A DNA stretch of 64,000 nucleotides, from contig NZ_CP044532.1 in assembly GCF_026427775.1 (NCBI RefSeq), positions 1,612,001 through 1,676,000 of the forward strand, read 5' to 3'. Origin of the DNA: Arthrobacter sp. CDRTa11 (lineage in GTDB: Bacteria > Actinomycetota > Actinomycetes > Actinomycetales > Micrococcaceae). Shown here one piece after another: positions 53,042 to 64,000 of the stretch (position 1 is the stretch's first letter; every line of letters begins with the position of its first letter). The notes beneath the pieces were generated by a model, which saw nothing but the letters and a program-made list of their open reading frames with translations, had not been told where the DNA came from and made no database searches. A program made the translations under genes and the position numbers.

Positions 53042-53115
53042 GGGGCTATAGCTCAGCTGGTTAGAGCGCGGGACTCATAATCCTAAGGTCCTCGGTTCAA
53101 GTCCGAGTAGCCCTA
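53042..53115 (+). tRNA. tRNA with CAT anticodon (Ile2-like, or elongator Met)
   Basis: A 74-base tRNA with CTCATAA in the anticodon loop. The acceptor GGGGCTA pairs with TAGCCCT with a G-T at the first position. The GGGGCTATAGCTCAG start is usual for tRNA-Ile, so it is probably a tRNA-Ile2 whose C34 is turned into lysidine by TilS. Elongator Met remains possible. The 3' end lies exactly at the start of the accessory island, so it is a likely attachment site. Confidence 0.88.
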
Positions 53116-53127
53116 CAGCTAGATTCT

Positions 53128-53234: not shown

Positions 53235-53444
53235 GTGCTTTCTGGTTTCTTAGGAGACTCCGCGTTCATCCTCAACCGGCTGGTGGCGCACGCGAAGGCG
53301 TGGATAAACACGATCCGTTCCATTCGCACGAGGGCTTCGGAGCACGACGGTGAGGCATGGGTGAGACTCGCTGAGTACGCCACACGGACGCTAGAAAGCG
53401 CCGCTCGGGAGTCTGGCTCTGCACGGAGCGTTCTGATGCGGTAG
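53235..53444 (+). pseudogene. C-terminal relic of the helical-repeat gene at 55810
   Basis: A 69-codon open frame. Residues about 12-60 align without gaps to residues 73-121 of the intact protein at 55810, with about 23 of 49 identical by my count (LNRLVAH against LNRLIAH, then EAWVRLAEYATRT against EVWTLLHAYATRT at the same distance). The N-terminal half is missing, cut at a TGA and the tRNA-side non-coding region, and no RBS is visible. After its stop, a different frame stays open into the next gene, so the 3' end may also carry a frameshift. Confidence 0.65.
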
Positions 53445-53581
53445 AGCGGCTTCTAAAGGCTAGCCGGAACCCTACGACAACTGGGCGAGTCGCTGCGGAA
53501 GTGCAGCAGGCTGGGACGCCTGACACGGTTCACCATCGCTGTCCGATAAGGTTTCTGGAACGCCGACGGACAAGGGACAGT

Positions 53582-54646
53582 ATGCAGGACCATGATCGAG
53601 TAGCACGATTGGTAAGCACCGCCCTCGATAATTTCGACAACCCCGGTAAATCTCTCGCCTCCCTCGTGCGGCAGGCAGCCCGCATCGCATCATTGCGGCA
53701 GGACTTCGCAGCGCAGTACCGCTTCCAGATAGAATTGCTGGATGTCGCCTCCGGTGCCGCAAAGACCGACCCGACCATTGACGGTATTAACAACAACCTC
53801 ATCACGCTCCTCGGTGTTGAGGACGCGCGGAAGCAGGTGTTGACGGCGTACTACGGCTATGAGCGTGGACGCCGAATGACTGGCACCGAGAACATCAACG
53901 TCATCAGCATCGCCCAGATTGAAGCCAACCTCGCACAGCTCCACAGCGTGTACGCCGAGTACTCCGTGACTGACAAGGGAAGCAGCTACTACGCCCACGA
54001 GGCGGCTATCGCCGCTGACAAGCAGCAAGCCAAGTTGCTCCCAATGATCCAAGCCCACTCGGAGATCGTTGAGCACGTTCGGCAGGACGTACATAGCTAC
54101 CTGTTGCTCACCGAAACCAACCTGCACAGCGGCAAGCCGACCAGCAGCGTTTTCGAACGCGGGCTGGAGTACGTCCGGGCTTCGTTGGCTGAACGCGCTC
54201 CGGCAGCTCTCGAAAAGTTCTCGGCGGCGGAAGCGAGTCTTGCGGCAGGCACTCCCGAGGACCTGTCTCATGCCCTAACCAGCACGCGCCGGATGATCAA
54301 GGCTCTTGCCGACGCGCTCTACCCGGCAACGGGAGAAACAATCGTCGGCGTAGACAAAGTCGAGCGCGCTATGGACGACGAGGCATACCGCAATCGGTTG
54401 ATCCAGTTCGCCAAAGAGAAACTCGGCAAGCGCCTTCAAGGCAAGGTCATGGGTGACGCCCTTGCTAGCTATGGCAAGCGCATCACGAATCTGGACTCTA
54501 TGGCTAGCAAGGGCGTGCACAGCGATGTCACCGCTGCTGAGGCTGAGCAGTGTGTCATTTGGAGCTTCATGCTTGCCGCTGACCTCCTCCGCATTGCAGA
54601 CGGAACGTCGGCAGACTTGGCACCAGTAGGCGCTCCGGGTGAGTGA
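53582..54646 (+). CDS. Uncharacterised helical protein in the defence island
   Basis: A 354-residue protein I cannot assign with confidence. The start is ATG 53582, with AAGGGA ahead; the frame is open further upstream. The N-terminus (SLASLVRQAARIASLRQDF, about 25-43) resembles AbiTii-type N-terminal regions. The C-terminal half (about 245-345) resembles HEPN-like helical domains, with ALTSTRRMIKALADALYP and a final KGVHSDVTAAEAEQC-type helix. An R-x4-6-H RNase motif is not seen. Its stop overlaps the 22-codon relic at 54639 (GTGAGTGA). A role in phage defence is inferred from location only. Confidence 0.6.
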   Translation: MQDHDRVARLVSTALDNFDNPGKSLASLVRQAARIASLRQDFAAQYRFQIELLDVASGAAKTDPTIDGINNNLITLLGVEDARKQVLTAYYGYERGRRMTGTENINVISIAQIEANLAQLHSVYAEYSVTDKGSSYYAHEAAIAADKQQAKLLPMIQAHSEIVEHVRQDVHSYLLLTETNLHSGKPTSSVFERGLEYVRASLAERAPAALEKFSAAEASLAAGTPEDLSHALTSTRRMIKALADALYPATGETIVGVDKVERAMDDEAYRNRLIQFAKEKLGKRLQGKVMGDALASYGKRITNLDSMASKGVHSDVTAAEAEQCVIWSFMLAADLLRIADGTSADLAPVGAPGE

Positions 54647-54707
54647 CTACGACGCCGAGAGCTTCGAAGCAGCAGCCATCGCCGGTGACTGCGAGCTTGC
54701 ACGATGA
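54639..54707 (+). pseudogene. 22-codon N-terminal relic of the helical-repeat gene
   Basis: VSDYDAESFEAAAIAGDCEL lines up with MTGYDAEEFERRAIAGDWKA of the intact protein at 55810; 12 of 22 positions are identical. The DNA shares the 18-base block AGCCATCGCCGGTGACTG (54674-54691 and 55845-55862). The GTG overlaps the upstream stop and the TGA overlaps the next ATG (ATGA). It is thus a truncated copy wedged in frame between two genes. It may now serve only to couple translation. Confidence 0.7.
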
Positions 54708-55324
54708 TTTCCGATTCCATCCCGTGGCGTGAGGAACTCTGGCGTGTAGCCGACAGGCTGGAAAAGAAGTCCAAGCAACAGCGGTGGACCGAGCGGAGCA
54801 GCTTCCTCGTCGAGCGGGACATGATGACGAGTGCCTACGCCATCCGGAGACTCAACGAAGCGCACAAGATTTCTGACGTCTTGGCGAAGACACGGGTGCC
54901 GGTGATCCGATACGCCCGGATCGGAGGCGTGCCAGACATCTGGAATCGGCAGGAATTCTGGGAACACTACGATCTGGAAAACGGACAGGGTGACCAGATC
55001 ACGATTCCGCACCTCTGCAACCAATTGATCCACAGCTTTGTTTGGATCATCAGCGGCAATAAGGACACCGAGCTATTCGACGGCGCGTTCGTCGCCTCAG
55101 AAAACGAACGCCACAAGCATCTGTACTTCCTCCCCGTTGAAAGTCTCATTGATCTTTGCCGGAAGGTTGCTGCTGAGGACATCGGCTCCGTCCAGTACCA
55201 GCGAGGAACCGACGGGATTATGCGGATCGTCAGCGTCAAGGTCATGGAAGACGACTGGCAGGAACCTGATCCCGGCATGCTGATGCTCAGCGCCGAGGCA
55301 CGCGCAAGCTACCGGGAGTCATGA
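54704..55324 (+). CDS. Uncharacterised soluble protein in the defence island
   Basis: A 206-residue protein without a recognised domain. Charged N-terminal helices (about 5-45) are followed by a mixed region with PHLCNQLIHSFVWIISG (about 106-122), which resembles an alpha-helical Cys/His segment, and a C-terminal part with many acidic residues. It overlaps the relic at 54639 (ATGA), so translation is coupled. It ends just inside the convergent gene at 55319. Function unknown. Confidence 0.65.
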   Translation: MISDSIPWREELWRVADRLEKKSKQQRWTERSSFLVERDMMTSAYAIRRLNEAHKISDVLAKTRVPVIRYARIGGVPDIWNRQEFWEHYDLENGQGDQITIPHLCNQLIHSFVWIISGNKDTELFDGAFVASENERHKHLYFLPVESLIDLCRKVAAEDIGSVQYQRGTDGIMRIVSVKVMEDDWQEPDPGMLMLSAEARASYRES

Positions 55325-55753
55325 TCCGCCTTCGAAGTGGGGCGAACACGACTCGCGTGGAGGGAGTTCCGGCAGCAACATCGCATAAGCGTCTCGATGA
55401 GCTTGCGTCCACCGGGTCAGGGCGATGACCTGCTGGGGCTGAAAGGTTTCTTCCAACGGCGACGGACCGAGGGCGACGAACGGCTCCACACCGAACTGGT
55501 GCGAGGTTGCGTCGATCCGAATCCCCGACTCAGACCGAAGCCAATCGTGATTTCCGTTGGCAGACACTCCGTTGACGATATGCCACTTGCCTAACCCTCT
55601 CGCTTGGAGCAGGTTGCCGAGGAAGAACGAAGCGACAGAGCAGCAGTTTGTGGGAAAGAAGTTCATGACCGCCATTGGCGGCTTCCACTCGACCCGGTGA
55701 ACGGCGGCGATGAAGTCCGCCAACAGATGCTCCAAGTTCTCAATCTCGTTCAC
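55319..55753 (-). CDS. Small protein with a transglutaminase/papain-like Cys-His pattern
   Basis: A 144-residue protein on the opposite strand to its neighbours. FPTNCCSVASFFLGNLL (Cys at a helix start) and GNHDWLRSESGIRIDATSH (His then Asp) fit a papain- or transglutaminase-type Cys-His-Asp layout, as in NlpC- or LCP-like folds. The assignment is inferred from pattern only. GTG 55753 has GAGGA upstream. It overlaps the neighbour at 54704 by six bases tail-to-tail. It could be a peptidase, acyltransferase or inactive relative. Confidence 0.6.
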   Translation of the reverse strand: MNEIENLEHLLADFIAAVHRVEWKPPMAVMNFFPTNCCSVASFFLGNLLQARGLGKWHIVNGVSANGNHDWLRSESGIRIDATSHQFGVEPFVALGPSPLEETFQPQQVIALTRWTQAHRDAYAMLLPELPPRESCSPHFEGGS

Positions 55754-55797
55754 TGCGATCCTCAGGCTTCCGTGACGGGTGTATGTCCAGTAAAGCC

Positions 55798-55803
55798 TAG
55801 GCT
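55798..55803 (+). promoter_or_regulatory. Leaderless -10 of the helical-repeat gene
   Basis: TAGGCT ends six bases before the ATG at 55810, with no Shine-Dalgarno sequence between. The same hexamer-to-start distance is seen at 11841, 40339, 44517 and 47316. Transcription would begin at or next to the start codon. Confidence 0.55.
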
Positions 55804-55809
55804 GGCTTC

Positions 55810-56196
55810 ATGACTGGATACGATGCCGAAGAGTTTGAGCGGAGAGCCATCGCCGGTGACTGGAAAGCCGCAATCAGCGTGCTGTCCCGTGCATCACTGA
55901 AACCCGAAGTACTGTCCGTTCTCATGACAGAGGATGCCCACATCGAGGTACGTCTTGCTTTGGCGATGCGTCCAGATGTCACGCCGGAACAGTTGGCATG
56001 GTGCGCTGAAACGGACGATGCGCACATGCTGAATCGGCTCATCGCTCATCCCCGTACGCCGCTCTCCACGATCAAAGGCATCAGGGATCGCTCTGAGGGT
56101 ATGGCAGGTGAAGTCTGGACTCTGCTGCACGCCTACGCCACGAGGACCGCAGAGCGCCGCGTGAGGGAGGCCGGCGGGCTTCACAGGGGTACTTGA
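55810..56196 (+). CDS. Helical-repeat (LRV/HEAT-like) protein, intact copy
   Basis: A 128-residue protein built of short helical repeats: EDAHIEVRLALAMRPDVTPE (about 41-60) is followed by a second unit, ETDDAHMLNRLIAHPRTPLS (67-86). This resembles leucine-rich-repeat-variant or HEAT-type repeats that bind partners. The first 20 residues (MTGYDAEEFERRAIAGDWKA) and the C-terminal EVWTLLHAYATRT recur as relics at 54639 and 53235. The next gene is gajA (131 bases on). Role unknown; a partner or regulator of the neighbouring defence genes is possible. Confidence 0.72.
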   Translation: MTGYDAEEFERRAIAGDWKAAISVLSRASLKPEVLSVLMTEDAHIEVRLALAMRPDVTPEQLAWCAETDDAHMLNRLIAHPRTPLSTIKGIRDRSEGMAGEVWTLLHAYATRTAERRVREAGGLHRGT

Positions 56197-56327: not shown

Positions 56328-57947
56328 GTGAAACTAAGCACTTTCAAAATTGAGAATCATAGCCGGTTGGCGGATTGCACTATCGAGGTACGTAAACATC
56401 TCGTAATCGTGGGTCCAAACGACGTTGGGAAGTCTTCGCTACTCCGATGCCTTGACCTACTGCTTGGTGCTTCAACTGCCGCACTCTACGGCAGACTAGA
56501 CGCCACCGATTTTAGGGATAAGTCGCTTCCGTTCGTTGTCGACGCGACCTTGACTGATCTCAAGCCGGACGACTACGCCCTGTTTCCGGATGAGATTTAC
56601 GTCGATCCGGTTACTGGGGAGAGGCACCTGCGAGTGCAGTTGAGCGTGAGCCTTGATTCCGAGGAGACGCTCAGCGCCACGAGAACTGCGCCGGACGGTT
56701 CGACAGGCAGGCAAATGTCACGGGATCAGTTAGCGGGCTTGGGCTGGAAGACAGTAGGCGCAGCGCATTCGACGTCCCGAGACTTCAGAGACGACCGCAA
56801 CACCTCGCTGGACGACATCATTTCCGCGATCGAGCTTGGAGACGAGGAGGCGCAATTTGAGTCGATTGCCGCAGCTTTTCAAGGTCAACTTGATGGCTCC
56901 GCTGTTCTAAGGAAGCTTCGATCACGGTTATCCAATCAGCTCAAGAAGGCGCTCCCTGAAGGCATCGAGCAGGACGACTTAAGTTTCGTTTCGACTGCCA
57001 CGGACGACTTGCTGAGTGACGTCAGACTCCAAATTCGTCGGAAGGGCGAGCTGCGGAACATGACGGAACAGTCAGACGGGGCAAGGGCTCTTTTTGCTAT
57101 CGCGCTGTACGATCTCGTTGCTGAGTCGGCGAATATTGTTGCCATCGACGAACCAGAAATACATCTTCATCCATCCAGCCAACGAAGCCTAGGGCGCTTA
57201 CTCCGCGATGGGGCAAACCAAAAAATCTTGGCAACTCATTCACCGGATATCGTCGGCATCTTTGACGTTGACGACGTCGTTGTCGTTAAGCCCGGTGGCG
57301 TCGTGGTTCAGCCGTCAGCCGGGTTTCTCGACGATGAGGAACGGCTACTTGCACATTGGTGGGTGGCGAATAAGTTAGAGCCCTTAACCTCCAGACGGGT
57401 AGCGCTGGTTGAGGGACCGGCTGATCGGATCATCATTCAGAAGGCAGCGGAGCTGACGGACAGGGACCTCGACCGGTTGGGCGTCGCACTAGTGGAACTG
57501 GGCGGCGCGGGCGATGTGAAGTACGTTCACAAGTTGTTCGGCAGTTCGGGCTTCAACGTGGCGATGTCGATCCTGATTGATCGCGATGCAGTAAGCGAGA
57601 CTGAAACTCACCTAGGTTTGACAGAATCTGAGTTCGCGTCGAACTCAGTATTCGTGTCAGAGGCGGACTTAGAGGACGAGTACACTTCCGCACTTGGTCA
57701 CATCGAACTCTTTGCGGCTTTGGAGTCTTCCAAGCTATTCACAAAGAACGAGCTGAGGAACTGTACGCGGTCGGGGACAGGCGGAACAGTTCTCCCCGCT
57801 GACGTCGCCGCGTTTTGCAGGTTCAAATCAAGTTACAAGGTCCGAGCTGCCTTGGTCGCGGCAAGCATTATGGATGAGGCGTCGGCGCGAAAAGTGGGCA
57901 GCGTTGATGCATTGCTGTCCGACGTGATGGAGCGCTCAGAATGGTAG
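56328..57947 (+). CDS. gajA: Gabija GajA: OLD-family ATPase-TOPRIM endonuclease
   Basis: A 539-residue protein. The N-terminal ABC-type ATPase has Walker A GPNDVGKSS (29-37), a signature-like QSDGARALFAIAL and Walker B VAIDEPEIHLH (D274-E275), then the switch histidine in LATHSPDIV. The C-terminal TOPRIM nuclease has Glu362 in LVEGPAD and D418/D420 in LIDRDA. Length and order fit GajA, which nicks DNA when nucleotides fall during phage attack. GTG 56328 is preceded by GGGGGA. The stop overlaps gajB by seven bases, the usual gajA-gajB arrangement. Confidence 0.88.
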   Translation: MKLSTFKIENHSRLADCTIEVRKHLVIVGPNDVGKSSLLRCLDLLLGASTAALYGRLDATDFRDKSLPFVVDATLTDLKPDDYALFPDEIYVDPVTGERHLRVQLSVSLDSEETLSATRTAPDGSTGRQMSRDQLAGLGWKTVGAAHSTSRDFRDDRNTSLDDIISAIELGDEEAQFESIAAAFQGQLDGSAVLRKLRSRLSNQLKKALPEGIEQDDLSFVSTATDDLLSDVRLQIRRKGELRNMTEQSDGARALFAIALYDLVAESANIVAIDEPEIHLHPSSQRSLGRLLRDGANQKILATHSPDIVGIFDVDDVVVVKPGGVVVQPSAGFLDDEERLLAHWWVANKLEPLTSRRVALVEGPADRIIIQKAAELTDRDLDRLGVALVELGGAGDVKYVHKLFGSSGFNVAMSILIDRDAVSETETHLGLTESEFASNSVFVSEADLEDEYTSALGHIELFAALESSKLFTKNELRNCTRSGTGGTVLPADVAAFCRFKSSYKVRAALVAASIMDEASARKVGSVDALLSDVMERSEW

Positions 57948-59626
57948 TGCCAACTGCTAAGCAAGCCCTTATTCGCGATTCGCCGGAACTAAGCATGCTG
58001 GTCGTAGCCCCTGCGGGATGCGGCAAAACCGAAGCCCTAGCACTCCGGATTGCAGGACTCATCAAGCGTGATCAGGTACGTAGACCTCGAAGAATCCTCG
58101 TCGTCACATTTTCCAAAAGAGCGCGAGATAATATTCGCGAGCGTCTCAAGTACTACGTGGATTCCCGCAAGCTTCAAGACATGGTCACGATTGCTAACTT
58201 CCATGGCTTGGCAGCCAGAATAGTCCGTGCTCACGGCAACGTCATCGGTGTTGAGGCGGACGCTGCGCTTCCGGATTCTGACTGGGTTGCCGCCGAGTGC
58301 CGACTGCGTGGGCTCGGCTACGATCGGACAGACGATGTGCGTCGGGTTCTTCGCAACACCAAATTGCAGCCGTTCACGGACGAGGAAGTCCTACACTCGC
58401 TCCGAGAGCACGGTGACACGATAGCGGAGTCAATTGAATTCAAGCGACGAGAGGAGGGACGACTTACCTACGAAGACCTCTTGCGCCACGCCGAAGTCAT
58501 CCTCCAAAACGAATCTGTTGCCGACATCTACGCACAACACTTCGAATGTGTGGTCGTAGACGAGTTCCAAGATTTGACACTCCAGCAACTTCGACTTGTC
58601 AGGAGCATCGGAGGGGACAAAGTAACTTTCGCCGGAGACCTCGCACAGGGAATCTACTCGTTCTCCGGTGCTGCCCCCAACGACGTTTACGAGTCAATCT
58701 TGGAGTATGCCGAGAAACAGATTGTTTTCGCGGAATCCCATAGGTCATCCCCTGCCGTTCTGGAACTTGTCAACGCTCTACGTAACTTCACTGGCGGTGA
58801 ACACCTAACATGTGCAGCGCCGGAAGCTTGGTCTGAAAATGGGCTGGCTGGCGTAGCTTCGTTCACCACCACGGAAACTGAGGCGCAGTGGGTCTACAAA
58901 TTCGCAGCCTATGTACTGGAACGTGCTCCTACTCATCGCGTCGGGGTCATCTGTCGGACGGCAGGGAGACGCCGGTTTGTGGACGAAGCCTTCAAAGCGG
59001 GAAGCCTGCCATGGCACCGATGGGACGACCCTTTGTTGGACAGGGAAACTGCGAACGCCACTCGTCGAATTCTGTCCGACCTTAAGCGCACGTCGTGGCA
59101 GCGTGCCGAAAACCCCACCGAGTTCCTCATGAATATGGCAGATGCAGAGGCACTTCACGACCCAGATACGCGTACCTCCCTGCGAGAGGCACTGGAGTGG
59201 GTGCATGATGAACTGCTTCGAGGCGCGGAAGCAACGGACTTGCTTGCCCGGATCAAGGTCGGTGACTCATCTGCATTCATCAGCGCTCCCGGCGTTCATC
59301 TCCTGAGCGGGCACGCGGGCAAGGGGCAGCAGTTTGATTGGGTTTGCGTGGTTGGGGCTGAAGAAGGCGTGCTCCCGTTCTTCAAGGCGACGTCCTCCGA
59401 GGAACTAGCTGAAGAAGCGCGCGTTCTCTCCGTCATGATTTCGCGGGCTAGGCATGGGGCGCTGGTCTTACATTCGAAGTCTGTGGCGGACTCATACGGG
59501 AGGACTCGAAGTAAAGACGCCTCTCGGTTCGCCAGTTCACTCAAGAACGCCCCTTTGTGTCGGAGCGGTTCAGCCATTGTTGAGTGGCTGAAAGCCGCTG
59601 ACTGGCAGAAGATATCTGCCAATTAG
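57941..59626 (+). CDS. gajB: Gabija GajB: UvrD/PcrA-like helicase
   Basis: A 561-residue superfamily 1 helicase. Motif I is APAGCGKTEA (Lys29), motif Ia VTFSKRARDNI, motif II VVVDEFQDLT (D207-E208), motif III-like FAGDLAQGIYSFSGA, and motif VI EEARVLSVMISRARHGALVL. It lacks the long 2B regions of full UvrD. GajB forms a supercomplex with GajA and senses DNA termini and nucleotide hydrolysis in published Gabija work. The overlap with gajA indicates coupling. Together they form a complete pair. Confidence 0.9.
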   Translation: MVVPTAKQALIRDSPELSMLVVAPAGCGKTEALALRIAGLIKRDQVRRPRRILVVTFSKRARDNIRERLKYYVDSRKLQDMVTIANFHGLAARIVRAHGNVIGVEADAALPDSDWVAAECRLRGLGYDRTDDVRRVLRNTKLQPFTDEEVLHSLREHGDTIAESIEFKRREEGRLTYEDLLRHAEVILQNESVADIYAQHFECVVVDEFQDLTLQQLRLVRSIGGDKVTFAGDLAQGIYSFSGAAPNDVYESILEYAEKQIVFAESHRSSPAVLELVNALRNFTGGEHLTCAAPEAWSENGLAGVASFTTTETEAQWVYKFAAYVLERAPTHRVGVICRTAGRRRFVDEAFKAGSLPWHRWDDPLLDRETANATRRILSDLKRTSWQRAENPTEFLMNMADAEALHDPDTRTSLREALEWVHDELLRGAEATDLLARIKVGDSSAFISAPGVHLLSGHAGKGQQFDWVCVVGAEEGVLPFFKATSSEELAEEARVLSVMISRARHGALVLHSKSVADSYGRTRSKDASRFASSLKNAPLCRSGSAIVEWLKAADWQKISAN

Positions 59627-59802
59627 AACAAATCTGCTGCGCGTTGCTCAGGCGGAGCACGGCGTCGATTGTCGGCTGCACAGGCAGTGGTCTTCACTGC
59701 CACCATCCAAGAAGTCAGAGCCTACCGAAATACACTGCGTATCCGGCAGATCGGTTGGCTTAGGATCAGAACGACGCATTGAGAATCTGGAGAAAGCACT
59801 GC

Positions 59803-61638
59803 ATGGAGCCCCACGGACGCTTGACACTGACATGGACCGGCAAAGACGCCTCCCTGATAAACGCCCCTGATGGGGGGTACGAGTGGGTGGCACAAGACGA
59901 CGTCCGCGTACATGAAGTCAGGCGATTGCTGCCGGAAGATCACTGCTCGTCCTCTGTTGCCGAACCGACGCCCGGTGCCACCGATGACAACATGCTCATC
60001 ATTGGGGATTCATCTGATGCGCTCCGCGCCTTGATCCACCATCCCGATTACGCGCAAAAGTACCGGGGCAAAGTGAAGCTCGTCTACGTCGATCCGCCAT
60101 TTAACACTGGTCAGACCTTTGAGCACTACGACGATGGTCTGGAACACTCGGTGTGGCTGACGGTGATGCGGGATCGGCTGGTTCAGATTCGTGATTTGCT
60201 GTCCGAAGACGGCTCGGTCTGGGTCCACCTTGACGACGCCGAAATGGCTTACCTCAAAGTCATCATGGATGAGGTGTTTGGACGACGAAATTACGTCACG
60301 TCGGTGATCTGGAGGAAGGTCGACAGCCCGAACGATAACAAAGTAACTGTCACCCCTGATCACGAAAACATCCTCTGCTACACCAAGAATCCGTCCACAC
60401 GGAACACATTCAATCGGAAGATTGATCCCGCACTGGCGGCTGCCTACGGGAAGGTTGATGAGTCTGGACGCCGCTATCGGGACAGGCTGCTCAGGAAGAA
60501 CGGGAAGAGCAGCCTCCGGTCAGACCGGGAGACGATGTTTTTCAAGCTAACCGATCCAGACGGAAACGATGTTTATCCGATTCGTGATGACGGTCGCGAG
60601 GGACGATGGGCGGCAGGTGTTGAGGGTGTTCAGCGAGCCGAGGCTGAAGGTCGCCTGATCTGGACCAAGCGGATCGATGACGCTGGAGTCGAAAAGTGGG
60701 TTCCGTACACGCGGGAGTATGCGCCCGACGTTCCAGAGCGTCCATGGGCAACTATCTGGACTGACGTTCACACGAGCCGACAAACCAAAGCTCATTTGAA
60801 GACCATGTTCCCTGAAGAAGGAACACAGTTCTCCACGCCCAAGCCCGAGCTGCTGCTCGAACGAATCATTCACATTGCGAGCAACCCCGGCGACATCGTC
60901 TTGGACTGCTTCGGCGGGTCTGGGACCACCGCGGCCGTTGCACACAAGATGGGACGGCACTGGGTCACCGTTGAGCTTTCGCAAAATACCGTCAACACGT
61001 TCACGAAACCGCGTCTCCAGAGAGTCACCAATAACGAGGACCCCGGCGGCATAACTATGTTGCCGCCGAGAGAAGTACCCACGGAAGACGATTTCCCCGA
61101 AGGCGGGGTGCTCGATGAGTACAAAACCGCCAACAAAGTGCTGAAGGAGCTAGTCAACGCCGGACTGCTGAACTCCAACGATGCAGCCGTCCAAGAACTC
61201 AAGCGACTCACCAAATCGAAGGTGATTCCTGCGGAAGAGCGGTGGGCAGGCGGCGGCTCGTTTGGTGTCTATAGTATTGCCCCGAGCATGTACACGCTGG
61301 ATGAAGACGGGTACCCGCTTTTTGCCGACCACGCTCTCAACGGAGTGTTTACAGAGGGGGCACGGGTGCAGCTTGGCTTCGCCAAGAACGCAATTGATAG
61401 GTACCCCTTTGCTGGTCAGCGAGACACGACTCTGCTGGCAGTGGTAGATGGGATTGTCAGTGCAGCCAATGTCAGGGACATCGTCCGATCCCTTCGCGAG
61501 GATGAGCGAGTCATCGTAGCCAGCAAAGGTATTGCACCGGGAGCCTCGGAGCTACTCCGCGCGTCGTCTCCCGGTTCTCACATAAAGAAGTTTCCACTGC
61601 ATGCATCCTTTGACGTCCTGAAGGCGGTTCGCTCATGA
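59803..61638 (+). CDS. mod: Type III restriction-modification methyltransferase Mod
   Basis: A 611-residue adenine-N6 methyltransferase of the beta type, where the catalytic motif precedes the SAM motif. DPPF is at 97-100 (YVDPPFNTGQTF) and the SAM motif DCFGGSGTTA at about 368-377. The region between (about 175-330) is the likely target-recognition part, and the C-terminal 220 residues are extra. Mod recognises and methylates one strand of a short asymmetric site and provides specificity to Res. ATG 59803 follows GGAG. The stop overlaps res (ATGA). Confidence 0.9.
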   Translation: MEPHGRLTLTWTGKDASLINAPDGGYEWVAQDDVRVHEVRRLLPEDHCSSSVAEPTPGATDDNMLIIGDSSDALRALIHHPDYAQKYRGKVKLVYVDPPFNTGQTFEHYDDGLEHSVWLTVMRDRLVQIRDLLSEDGSVWVHLDDAEMAYLKVIMDEVFGRRNYVTSVIWRKVDSPNDNKVTVTPDHENILCYTKNPSTRNTFNRKIDPALAAAYGKVDESGRRYRDRLLRKNGKSSLRSDRETMFFKLTDPDGNDVYPIRDDGREGRWAAGVEGVQRAEAEGRLIWTKRIDDAGVEKWVPYTREYAPDVPERPWATIWTDVHTSRQTKAHLKTMFPEEGTQFSTPKPELLLERIIHIASNPGDIVLDCFGGSGTTAAVAHKMGRHWVTVELSQNTVNTFTKPRLQRVTNNEDPGGITMLPPREVPTEDDFPEGGVLDEYKTANKVLKELVNAGLLNSNDAAVQELKRLTKSKVIPAEERWAGGGSFGVYSIAPSMYTLDEDGYPLFADHALNGVFTEGARVQLGFAKNAIDRYPFAGQRDTTLLAVVDGIVSAANVRDIVRSLREDERVIVASKGIAPGASELLRASSPGSHIKKFPLHASFDVLKAVRS

Positions 61639-64000
61639 GTTGGCTGGAGAACGATCAGGAGCTTGTGGCGGAAATCGGTGTCCGGGTCGGGCTCCGGGAC
61701 CCCAACTGCCGCGCGCTGTCCGCCATCGTCGATAATATCGGTGCGGACGATTTCCGCGAGGTTGTCTGCGATCTGGCGACCGGGGTGGGCAAGACTTACA
61801 TCACCGCTGGATTGGTCGAGTATCTCTTTGCCAAGGGTGTTCGAAATGTCCTGATTATGACTCCGGGCAAAGTTGTCTTGGAGAAGACGGTAGGAAACTT
61901 CACTCCGGGGCACCCCAAGTACATACCGAACTTGGAAGTCCAGCCCCTTGTTGTGACGAGAGAAAATTTTCAGCGCTCCGAGGTGGGCGATGCCCTCCAT
62001 AACCCGAACACGCTCAAGATTTTCATCTTCAACGTCCACCAGCTTCTCAAACCCAATATCAAGGACAACAGGGCGACATTCGAGCCTAATGAGTTCATCG
62101 GCACCGGGTTGTATGAGCACCTTCAGACAGCCGACGATCTGGTTGTCATTGCAGATGAGCACCACACTTACCACGAGCAAGCAGCCAAGTTCTCGAAAGC
62201 TGTCCGGGAGATCAGCCCCCGTGCGCTCGTTGGGCTGACTGCGACCCCAGCCGAAGCCGACCTTGAAAAGGTCATCTTCCGTTATCGACTGGCTGATGCG
62301 ATCGTCGACGAGTACGTGAAAATCCCCACGCTTGCCTACCGCCTCAATGGTCATGCCTCAGTCGATCTTCAGTTGGCAGATGCCTGTGCAGTTCGGGATG
62401 CCAAAGAGCTTGTCTATCTGGACTATGCCGTTCAGGAAAACCTTCCCGCTCGGAAACCTTTGCTGCTAGTCGTCTGTGCAAGCATCAGCGAAGCCACCGA
62501 CTTCACCGACAAGTTGGTCAGTGAACATTTTGGCGGTGACCAGAGTGCTGTCCTCTGCATTACCAGCGAGTCTTCTGAAGCTGATTTGCAGGCACTGGAA
62601 ACTGTTGAACGCCCGGACTCGCCTGTGCGCGCTGTTGTCAGCGTCAGCAAGCTGAAAGAGGGCTGGGATGTAAAGACAGTTGCAGTGATCATGGTGACAC
62701 GAAAGCTGGCTTCTGAAACTCTAACTGAGCAGATTATGGGACGCGGGCTGAGACTTCCCTTTGGTCGCCGTGTTGGCATTCCTTTGATCGATCAGCTCGA
62801 CATCATCGACCACCAGAGCTATAAGAAGCTTCTTGCCCAGAAGAACCTTCTGCTGGAACAGCTAATCCCAGACGAAGACGTCCGGAACCACGTCCGGGAA
62901 GAACATGAGACCGAGCCGGGGGAGACGGACAGCCCCACAGCGGGAGTGGTGGCTAACCACACTGAGGATGATTCCCTTTCGTCGACGGGTACTGGTGCTG
63001 GAGACCCGGCAGCAGGACCGGATGGTATTGCTTTTGCTTGGAGCCCCGGTGCACCCGCCGCAGAGAATGACGCAACTGTGTTGGACGCCTCGGAAGTTTT
63101 CCTGATTCAGGAAATTGGACAACGAGTTCAGCAGGCGCAGAAGCCGACACACATGTACAAAGACGCAAAATTCAAGGAGATTTACTTCCCAGCGCAGAGA
63201 ACGGAAATCACTCCGGCAGCCTTTAGTCTCTCGGCGGTCAATAACGCTCAGGCATTCAGCGTCGGCGCCAAGTACACCCAAGAAGTGTCTGACCGCCTGA
63301 CTCGTAAGGCACTGGAGGCAACGCGGGATGAAGCCGGAACGGTGTCTATCCAAGAGGTTCAACAGGATTACCTTGAGGGCTATCAGGAGAAAGCTCCGGT
63401 CTCGGAGGTTAAGTCTGAGGTGATCGCGCGGCTGAGAAAGAAAGACCTGTTTGTCGGGACCACTGCGGAGAAGAACGCTCTAAACCGTCTCGTTGATCAG
63501 TTTCTGCTCGGCGCTGGAGTAGGCAAGGACCAAGACAGCATCGAGTGGGGCGTGAACCGTACGGTAATGGCAGTCAACGGATTGCTTAGGCTCATCGATG
63601 ACAGCTACGCGAAGCAAACGTCCGTTGGCGTCCCCTCGTTTCGTTTTGAACTTGTTGAAGTGCCTCTGTCGCCAGTCATCTTCCCCGACAAGCCAATCGT
63701 GCACAAAGACATGGCTGGACCAGTCAAAGACCGCTACTACAACGGATGGAAGCGCTCTGCGATGCCGTTGGTCGCCTTTGACGCAGCAACTACCGAACTG
63801 GCACTAGCGCGGCTCATTGATGCGACACCCGAGGTAGCCGCTTGGACCCGGCTCTACGTAAATGGCGACCGAGATGTGAGCATCGATGTGGGCGCACGGA
63901 GCTATTACCCTGACCTCATCGCGGTCGATGAGGACAACGTCCACTACCTCATAGAAGGCAAAGCGGACAGGGACCTCACGCGACAAGAAGTCACGGAAAA
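61635..64000 (+). CDS. res: Type III restriction endonuclease Res subunit (partial, runs off the right end)
   Basis: 788 full codons are present and the frame is still open at base 64000. The N-terminal superfamily 2 helicase has Walker A ATGVGKT (48-54), DEHH box IADEHHTYH (174-177), the GLTATPAE motif III and motif VI QIMGRGLRL (366-373). The C-terminal nuclease site YPDLIA (D760) with IEGKA (E774, K776) fits the PD-(D/E)xK pattern of Res. An acidic/Ser-Gly-rich linker is found near 420-465. Res translocates on ATP and cuts when two Mod-Res complexes meet. ATGA overlap with mod. Confidence 0.92.
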   Translation, partial: MSWLENDQELVAEIGVRVGLRDPNCRALSAIVDNIGADDFREVVCDLATGVGKTYITAGLVEYLFAKGVRNVLIMTPGKVVLEKTVGNFTPGHPKYIPNLEVQPLVVTRENFQRSEVGDALHNPNTLKIFIFNVHQLLKPNIKDNRATFEPNEFIGTGLYEHLQTADDLVVIADEHHTYHEQAAKFSKAVREISPRALVGLTATPAEADLEKVIFRYRLADAIVDEYVKIPTLAYRLNGHASVDLQLADACAVRDAKELVYLDYAVQENLPARKPLLLVVCASISEATDFTDKLVSEHFGGDQSAVLCITSESSEADLQALETVERPDSPVRAVVSVSKLKEGWDVKTVAVIMVTRKLASETLTEQIMGRGLRLPFGRRVGIPLIDQLDIIDHQSYKKLLAQKNLLLEQLIPDEDVRNHVREEHETEPGETDSPTAGVVANHTEDDSLSSTGTGAGDPAAGPDGIAFAWSPGAPAAENDATVLDASEVFLIQEIGQRVQQAQKPTHMYKDAKFKEIYFPAQRTEITPAAFSLSAVNNAQAFSVGAKYTQEVSDRLTRKALEATRDEAGTVSIQEVQQDYLEGYQEKAPVSEVKSEVIARLRKKDLFVGTTAEKNALNRLVDQFLLGAGVGKDQDSIEWGVNRTVMAVNGLLRLIDDSYAKQTSVGVPSFRFELVEVPLSPVIFPDKPIVHKDMAGPVKDRYYNGWKRSAMPLVAFDAATTELALARLIDATPEVAAWTRLYVNGDRDVSIDVGARSYYPDLIAVDEDNVHYLIEGKADRDLTRQEVTE

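What the first reader, a model, noticed from the sequence alone, without database searches (positions are those of the whole stretch)
53235..56196. A helical-repeat gene present as one intact copy and two relics, alternating with cargo genes
Seen directly: the intact protein at 55810 has an N-terminal relic at 54639-54707 and a C-terminal relic at 53235-53444. The C-terminal relic aligns ungapped over 49 residues with about 23 identities. The N-terminal relic shares 12 of 22 residues and an 18-base DNA block. Their order is C-relic, cargo, N-relic, cargo, intact, gajA. A single gene split by insertion would give N before C, so at least two extra copies, or a recombined tandem array, are needed. 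Inference: this gene marks the borders of exchangeable cargo modules in a defence locus, perhaps by homologous recombination between copies, and its helical repeats may serve as an adaptor to changing partners.
Basis: partly seen in the sequence, partly recalled or inferred. Interest (0 to 1): 0.85.

Follow-up and report, generated by a model that had tools for sequence, protein, structure and literature searches.

The report
Phage hotspot edge gene with relics
A small, unnamed gene of soil bacteria and their viruses repeatedly sits at the edge of a spot where defence and other cargo genes are swapped, and this genome keeps one intact copy plus two cut remnants.

Summary
Terminal profiles of the family recover both relics well above background, inside a real 22.3-kb island running from tRNA-Met to a 52-bp att repeat beside a tyrosine integrase. 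The island carries Gabija and type III restriction-modification.

The 128-residue protein belongs to a family with no Pfam, NCBIfam, PHROG, PADLOC or PDB-sequence match. It is predicted to be an alpha-solenoid and appears to be under purifying selection. In the genomes searched, full-length members occur only in the window's taxonomic family. In five related (pro)phages it is the constant edge of a variable slot: 12 of 14 genes between the putative lysis genes and it are unique, against 10 of 46 on the tail-lysis side. One such prophage sits in the same tRNA-Met in a relative. In bacterial islands it lies beside exchangeable cargo and is often cut (8 of 14 copies broken in 206 genomes). In one relative, cargo lies between its N- and C-terminal pieces.

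In three of four same-locus pairs tested the copies are not sisters (window AU p 0.004). Recent in-situ duplication and recombination between the window's copies are not supported; serial acquisition fits best. What the protein does, including any adaptor role, is untested.

The parts
53042..53116 (+). tRNA-Met (cat). Bases 53065-53116 are the 52-bp att core, repeated exactly at window-equivalent 75407-75458 outside the window: left border of a 22.3-kb island
53235..53444 (+). C-terminal relic of the solenoid gene (profile positions 69-125), divergent copy
53501..54646 (+). Cargo 1 (381 aa as listed; start uncertain), unknown function; 77% identical homologue in the solenoid-bearing island of G109
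   Evidence: no convincing family
54639..54707 (+). N-terminal relic (22 codons, GTG start), overlapping the end of cargo 1 and the ATGA start of cargo 2; profile match ends at residue 17
54704..55324 (+). Cargo 2 (206 aa), unknown function; homologues are neighbours of the solenoid gene in G037, G051, G006
55319..55753 (-). Probable gene, 144 aa, facing away from the intact copy; weak similarity to phrog_12251 (E 0.0013) and YunG (E 0.069)
55810..56196 (+). Intact solenoid (LRV-like helical repeat) gene, 128 aa
56193..57947 (+). GajA of Gabija (true start possibly further inside)
57941..59626 (+). GajB of Gabija
59779..61638 (+). Type III methyltransferase (Mod)
61635..64000 (+). Type III restriction subunit (Res), running past the window end to about 64151

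Best explanation
The 128-aa gene is the conserved edge gene of an accessory-gene slot in Arthrobacter-type mobile elements. In temperate phages the slot lies between the putative lysis genes and this gene; in integrative islands the gene lies beside defence and other cargo. Cargo is replaced at the edge gene, and replacement sometimes cuts into it. The window's tRNA-Met island acquired cargo several times with separately derived copies; two copies were truncated at joins and one is intact. Shown: the island and its borders, the two relics, the phage slot and its constant edge, the non-sister relation of intact copy and C-relic, and cargo between the two ends of the gene in a relative. Inferred: that the joins arose by replacement, the order of events, the separate origin of the N-relic (too short to place), and that islands and phages exchange this region. 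The protein seems selected for in its own right; my guess is a protein-binding solenoid used by the element while resident in the host.
For: Phage slot: in five (pro)phages with related tail and lysis-side genes, 12 of 14 genes between the putative lysis genes and this gene have no relative in the compared parts of the other four, against 10 of 46 on the tail-lysis side (Fisher p 2.7e-5), while the gene itself is present in all five. DNA identity is 73-78% in the aligned part of the gene; in the 400 bases upstream 5 of 10 pairs are no better than shuffled sequence. Same site: G188 has a 40.7-kb prophage with an intact copy in the same tRNA-Met, with a 44-bp repeat. Last gene before att: G204, 39-bp repeat. 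Non-sister copies at one locus: window AU p 0.0039, G167 0.033, P0014/P0018 0.00018. Cargo within the gene: G022 has residues 1-22, then DUF3037 and HipA_2 genes and a 120-aa gene, then residues from about 99 to the stop, with DNA past the stop still matching the G188 phage. Broken copies: 8 of 14 in 206 genomes (my count). Shared cargo: related genes (33% identity, E 2e-12) lie upstream of the solenoid gene in the G204 phage (a 50-aa gene between) and in the G109 island (an 81-aa ORF between). dN/dS about 0.065-0.30 in seven pairs.
Against: P0003/P0016 are not significantly non-sisters (AU p 0.09). Breakage compared with neighbouring families is weak evidence (8/14 against 2/14, p 0.046, set up after seeing the data). 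None of the 8 of 14 phage-slot genes tested is a convincing known defence gene. Cargo 2 is a recurrent, not an arbitrary, neighbour. I recognised no phage structural genes in the island, but only part of it was run against Pfam; its integrase is 30% identical to a candidate integrase of the G188 prophage. Island slots have no second conserved border as in the phages. Five of 10 phage pairs score above the shuffled maximum (26) upstream of the gene, two clearly (53 and 93), so the edge is not equally sharp everywhere. dS exceeds 1 in five of the seven dN/dS pairs, so those ratios are rough.
Confidence: 0.6

Rival explanations
1. Partner model: the solenoid is a functional partner (immunity, regulator or adaptor) of the variable cargo and travels with it, so each cassette brings its own copy.
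For: Cargo 2 and the solenoid gene co-occur: 5 of the 6 genomes with cargo 2 have it, the window's included, against 6 of 200 others (p 9e-7), and they overlap by 4 bp in G051 and G006. A DUF6504-like gene overlaps it by 8 bp in G373, and a similar-looking gene in G360 C60. Purifying selection. Four of 24 neighbouring genes carry a HEPN-like R[NDH]xxxH motif (36 of 693 called genes).
Against: Partners differ widely (phage-slot genes, cargo 2, DUF6504-like). The window's cargo 1 and cargo 2 persist beside relics that cannot encode the protein. Cargo 2 occurs in G151 and at a second G109 locus with no copy detected in the fetched stretches.
Confidence: 0.17
2. Ordinary island debris: just one more accessory gene, with relics such as any island gene leaves.
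For: A cargo 2 fragment also exists (G109). The breakage comparison is only marginal. That islands collect pseudogenes is general knowledge.
Against: The fixed position at the phage slot edge, non-sister copies at one place, and N- and C-terminal pieces flanking cargo in G022 are more than random decay predicts.
Confidence: 0.15
3. In-situ tandem duplication with homologous recombination between copies.
For: Three copies in one direction; an 18-base identical block between N-relic and intact gene.
Against: Sister relation of intact gene and C-relic rejected (AU p 0.0039). The intact gene is 81% identical to a protein of another strain but 44% to the C-relic. Longest identical block of C-relic and intact gene is 8 bases.
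Confidence: 0.08

Closest known systems
Hotspots of antiviral systems in P2-like phages and P4-like satellites (PMC9122126; passages seen)
   Same: Small slot with high gene turnover between conserved genes of a temperate phage or satellite (in P4, between psu and int)
   Different: Other host group and other border gene. The border gene here is often cut and recurs as divergent copies in islands. Cargo of the phage slot is not recognised as defence
Leucine-rich repeat variant (LRV) helical repeat proteins
   Same: All-helical solenoid model; the best match among viral models is a phage protein named 'Leucine rich repeat variant' (probability 0.99, but E 0.07)
   Different: No Pfam match at E<=1; about 128 aa with its own conserved N-terminus
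tRNA-integrated defence islands (general knowledge)
   Same: tRNA att core, 52-bp repeat, tyrosine integrase, Gabija and type III R-M cargo
   Different: Contains relics of one small gene at cargo joins

Membership tests
Phage accessory-gene hotspot (P2/P4 kind) | Slot at a fixed place between conserved genes of the phage | tested here: met
   Five of five (pro)phages compared; the second border is the putative lysis genes, named by my reading
Phage accessory-gene hotspot (P2/P4 kind) | High turnover of the genes in the slot | tested here: met
   12 of 14 genes without a relative in the compared parts of the other four phages
Phage accessory-gene hotspot (P2/P4 kind) | Cargo includes anti-phage systems | tested here: inconclusive
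   No convincing PADLOC match in 8 of the 14 slot genes (best E 0.009). Beside island copies: Gabija and type III R-M, a type I R-M methylase and a KAP gene, HipA_2
LRV repeat family (Pfam PF01816, accession recalled) | Match to the Pfam model | tested here: not met
   No Pfam family at E<=1 for the intact protein
LRV repeat family (Pfam PF01816, accession recalled) | Helical solenoid fold (feature recalled) | tested here: inconclusive
Gabija | Adjacent GajA (ATPase-TOPRIM) and GajB (UvrD-like helicase) | tested here: met
   PADLOC E 1.2e-213 and 3.6e-217; Pfam
tRNA-integrated island | Integrase and direct repeats at the ends, site empty in relatives | tested here: met
   52-bp repeat and integrase; site empty or nearly so in 24 of the 30 relatives examined, which I picked from 206

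The most novel reading that the evidence does not exclude
The solenoid is a shared adaptor: one conserved protein that couples many exchangeable effectors (HEPN-like genes, cargo 2, DUF6504-like genes and others) to a common trigger or host target, so selection keeps it at the edge of every cassette and new cassettes bring, or capture, their own variant.
Probability: 0.15. Interest if true: 0.8.

Novelty: new variant of a known kind. Interest (0 to 1): 0.55.

Why it matters
The gene is a ready bait. Reading the genes beside it should list unrecognised phage-slot cargo and candidate defence genes in Arthrobacter-type bacteria, as psu was used for P4 satellites. It also links phage slots and chromosomal defence islands through one marker whose remnants record past cargo replacement. 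If the adaptor reading were true, it would be a common component of many interchangeable systems.
Full report
OBSERVATION. The window is bases 1612001-1676000 of a 5.16-Mb single-contig genome of what I take to be an Arthrobacter-type bacterium. The genus is inferred: named relatives of the protein are Arthrobacter, and the same-genus genome G126 matches a Paenarthrobacter nitroguajacolicus record in contig length and hit. The intact protein finds the C-relic on its own (E 3.1e-10); the family profile gives E 4.9e-15. The N-relic needs an N-terminal profile: E 1.2e-5 in the genus scan, where unexplained matches start at E 0.009. In the window the relic scores are 30.8 and 76.2 bits against next-best 6.7 and 5.5, and against 9.1 and 8.6 in 454 kb of reversed DNA. 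Plain tblastn alone would not have secured the N-relic.

SETTING. tRNA-Met (53042-53116) lies just upstream. Its last 52 bases recur exactly at window-equivalent 75407-75458, next to a tyrosine integrase at 73665-75122. So relics, cargo, Gabija and the type III R-M pair are in one 22.3-kb island that reaches beyond the window. I examined the same tRNA in 30 relatives that I picked out of 206; in 24 the host gene that follows the island lies within the fetched flank of about 1.5 kb, i.e. the site is empty or nearly so. In G188 the same tRNA holds a 40.7-kb prophage.

THE FAMILY. 27 proteins, the window's own included, were found, 121-168 aa and mostly near 128. The N-terminal region is strongly conserved, and W64, R76 and W103 are among the invariant positions. 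Pfam, PADLOC, NCBIfam and PHROGs give no match for the window protein, and PDB sequences give none for the family profile. The model is confident and all helical (mean pLDDT 91.5, eight helices). The first-ranked viral model is named leucine-rich repeat variant, at probability 0.99 but E 0.07. dN/dS was computed for eight pairs; dS was saturated in one (window against G188), and the other seven give about 0.065-0.30, five of them with dS above 1 and so rough. Whole-genome searches: 11 of 206 same-genus genomes; 7 of 395 family genomes, of which three were new (G344, G360, G373); of 233 order-level genomes the window and two weak partial matches; a further weak partial match. Metagenome members have no taxonomy here.

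PHAGES. Five distinct (pro)phages carry it: G204, G188, G126, and IMG/VR contigs 2721755670 and 2734481943, the last with a frameshift. In G126 and 2721755670 the N-terminus departs from the usual start but the frame is open. By my reading of positions and sequences, not by a family search, the genes on one side are lysin and holin. Between them and this gene lie 14 called genes, 12 of them without a relative in the compared parts of the other four phages; on the tail-lysis side 10 of 46 lack one (Fisher p 2.7e-5; I set the interval limits by hand). The two shared slot genes are one 50/58-aa pair. The other side is the att site (G204, 39-bp repeat), the host chromosome (G126, where I found no att repeat of 16 bases or more in the fetched stretches), both, or a DUF3263 gene and early genes (G188 and the two viral contigs; Pfam was run for one of the three, and the others are its relatives). 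DNA identity is 73-78% in the aligned part of the gene. In the 400 bases upstream 5 of 10 pairs are at the level of shuffled sequence and 5 above it, two of them clearly. This is the pattern described for P2 and P4 hotspots (PMC9122126, passages).

ISLANDS. I count fourteen copies in the 206 genomes. Six are intact: window, G204, G188, G126, G037, G051 (three of these are the prophages above). Eight are broken: the window's C-relic and N-relic, two in G167, and one each in G022 (split), G213 (N-fragment), G109 and G006. Outside that search, G344 and one viral contig are also frameshifted. In G022 codons 1-22 and the codons from about 99 to the stop flank a DUF3037 gene, a HipA_2 gene and a 120-aa gene; DNA beyond the C-piece still matches the G188 phage. 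In G167 two damaged copies 10.5 kb apart flank a type I R-M methylase gene and a KAP-NTPase gene. In G213 the N-piece lies between a large gene matching PADLOC Orf5, HEC-06 and type IV restriction models and an SNF2 helicase gene. In G037, G051 and G006 a cargo 2 homologue lies directly upstream or one gene away, as in the window. Cargo 2 co-occurs with the gene (5 of 6 genomes against 6 of 200, p 9e-7). Related genes lie upstream of the solenoid gene in the G204 phage (a 50-aa gene between) and in the G109 island (an 81-aa ORF between): 33% identity, E 2e-12.

ORIGIN OF THE COPIES. The intact gene is 81% identical to a protein of Arthrobacter sp. UYCo732 and 44% to the window's C-relic. Trees joining same-locus copies are rejected for the window (AU p 0.0039), G167 (0.033) and P0014/P0018 (0.00018), not for P0003/P0016 (0.09). 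In the first three, one copy lies inside and one outside a 27-row clade with 95/95 support, in a tree whose bootstrap had not fully settled. That P0003/P0016 and P0014/P0018 share a contig is inferred from equal contig lengths. So these copies arrived separately or diverged long ago; recent duplication in place is not supported. The N-relic is too short to place.

MECHANISM. Shown: a conserved edge, variable cargo beside it, copies cut at joins. Inferred: cargo is replaced between elements that share the edge; some replacements are illegitimate and end inside the gene; the window's island went through several rounds. The N-relic starts within the end of cargo 1 and ends in the ATGA start of cargo 2. 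In G037 and G109 the same overlap is made with a small serine-recombinase gene (Pfam for the G037 gene), so the relic may keep translation of cargo 2 coupled. The protein's own role is open; apparent purifying selection argues for one.

CONTROLS AND LIMITS. The breakage comparison (8 of 14 against 2 of 14 in cargo 1, cargo 2 and a SLATT-like neighbour; p 0.046) was set up after the fact and is weak. Gene calls are from a simple codon-usage caller of my own; it split the type III Res gene, which is open throughout, so single gene calls may err. HEPN-like motifs occur in 4 of 24 neighbouring genes against 36 of 693 called genes, neighbours included, a lead only. The wider protein search could not be made.

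Noticed in passing
L034 8096-8656, L101 13706-14272, L035 10983-11561, L039 11272-11844: A small serine recombinase-like gene lies next to cargo 2 or its fragment in four genomes; in G037 and G109 its stop overlaps the cargo 2 start (ATGA). Pfam Resolvase was tested for the L034 gene only.
   Followed up: partly
L101 14269-14337: N-terminal fragment of a cargo 2 homologue in G109, about 12 kb upstream of the damaged solenoid gene: a second gene cut at the same kind of place.
   Followed up: partly
window 55319-55753 (-): 144-aa probable gene with a Cys...His...Asp pattern (my reading), weakly like phrog_12251 and YunG.
   Followed up: partly
L034 9227-9724 (-), L031 8864-9589 (-), L037 8887-9372 (+): Genes upstream of the solenoid gene with an RNxxxH motif typical of HEPN ribonucleases (meaning of the motif recalled).
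   Followed up: partly
L042 3722-4006, L044 6851-7168: DUF6504-like genes overlap the start of the solenoid gene by 8 bp in plasmid-like contigs of another genus (Pfam E 0.0098 for the L044 gene, below Pfam's cut-off; the L042 gene by resemblance).
   Followed up: no
window 59779-64000: Type III Mod and Res pair directly downstream of Gabija; Res runs out of the window.
   Followed up: partly
L077 (window-equivalent 64194-73206): Island genes of unknown function, including an ArsR-type regulator and a 460-aa gene without Pfam match.
   Followed up: no
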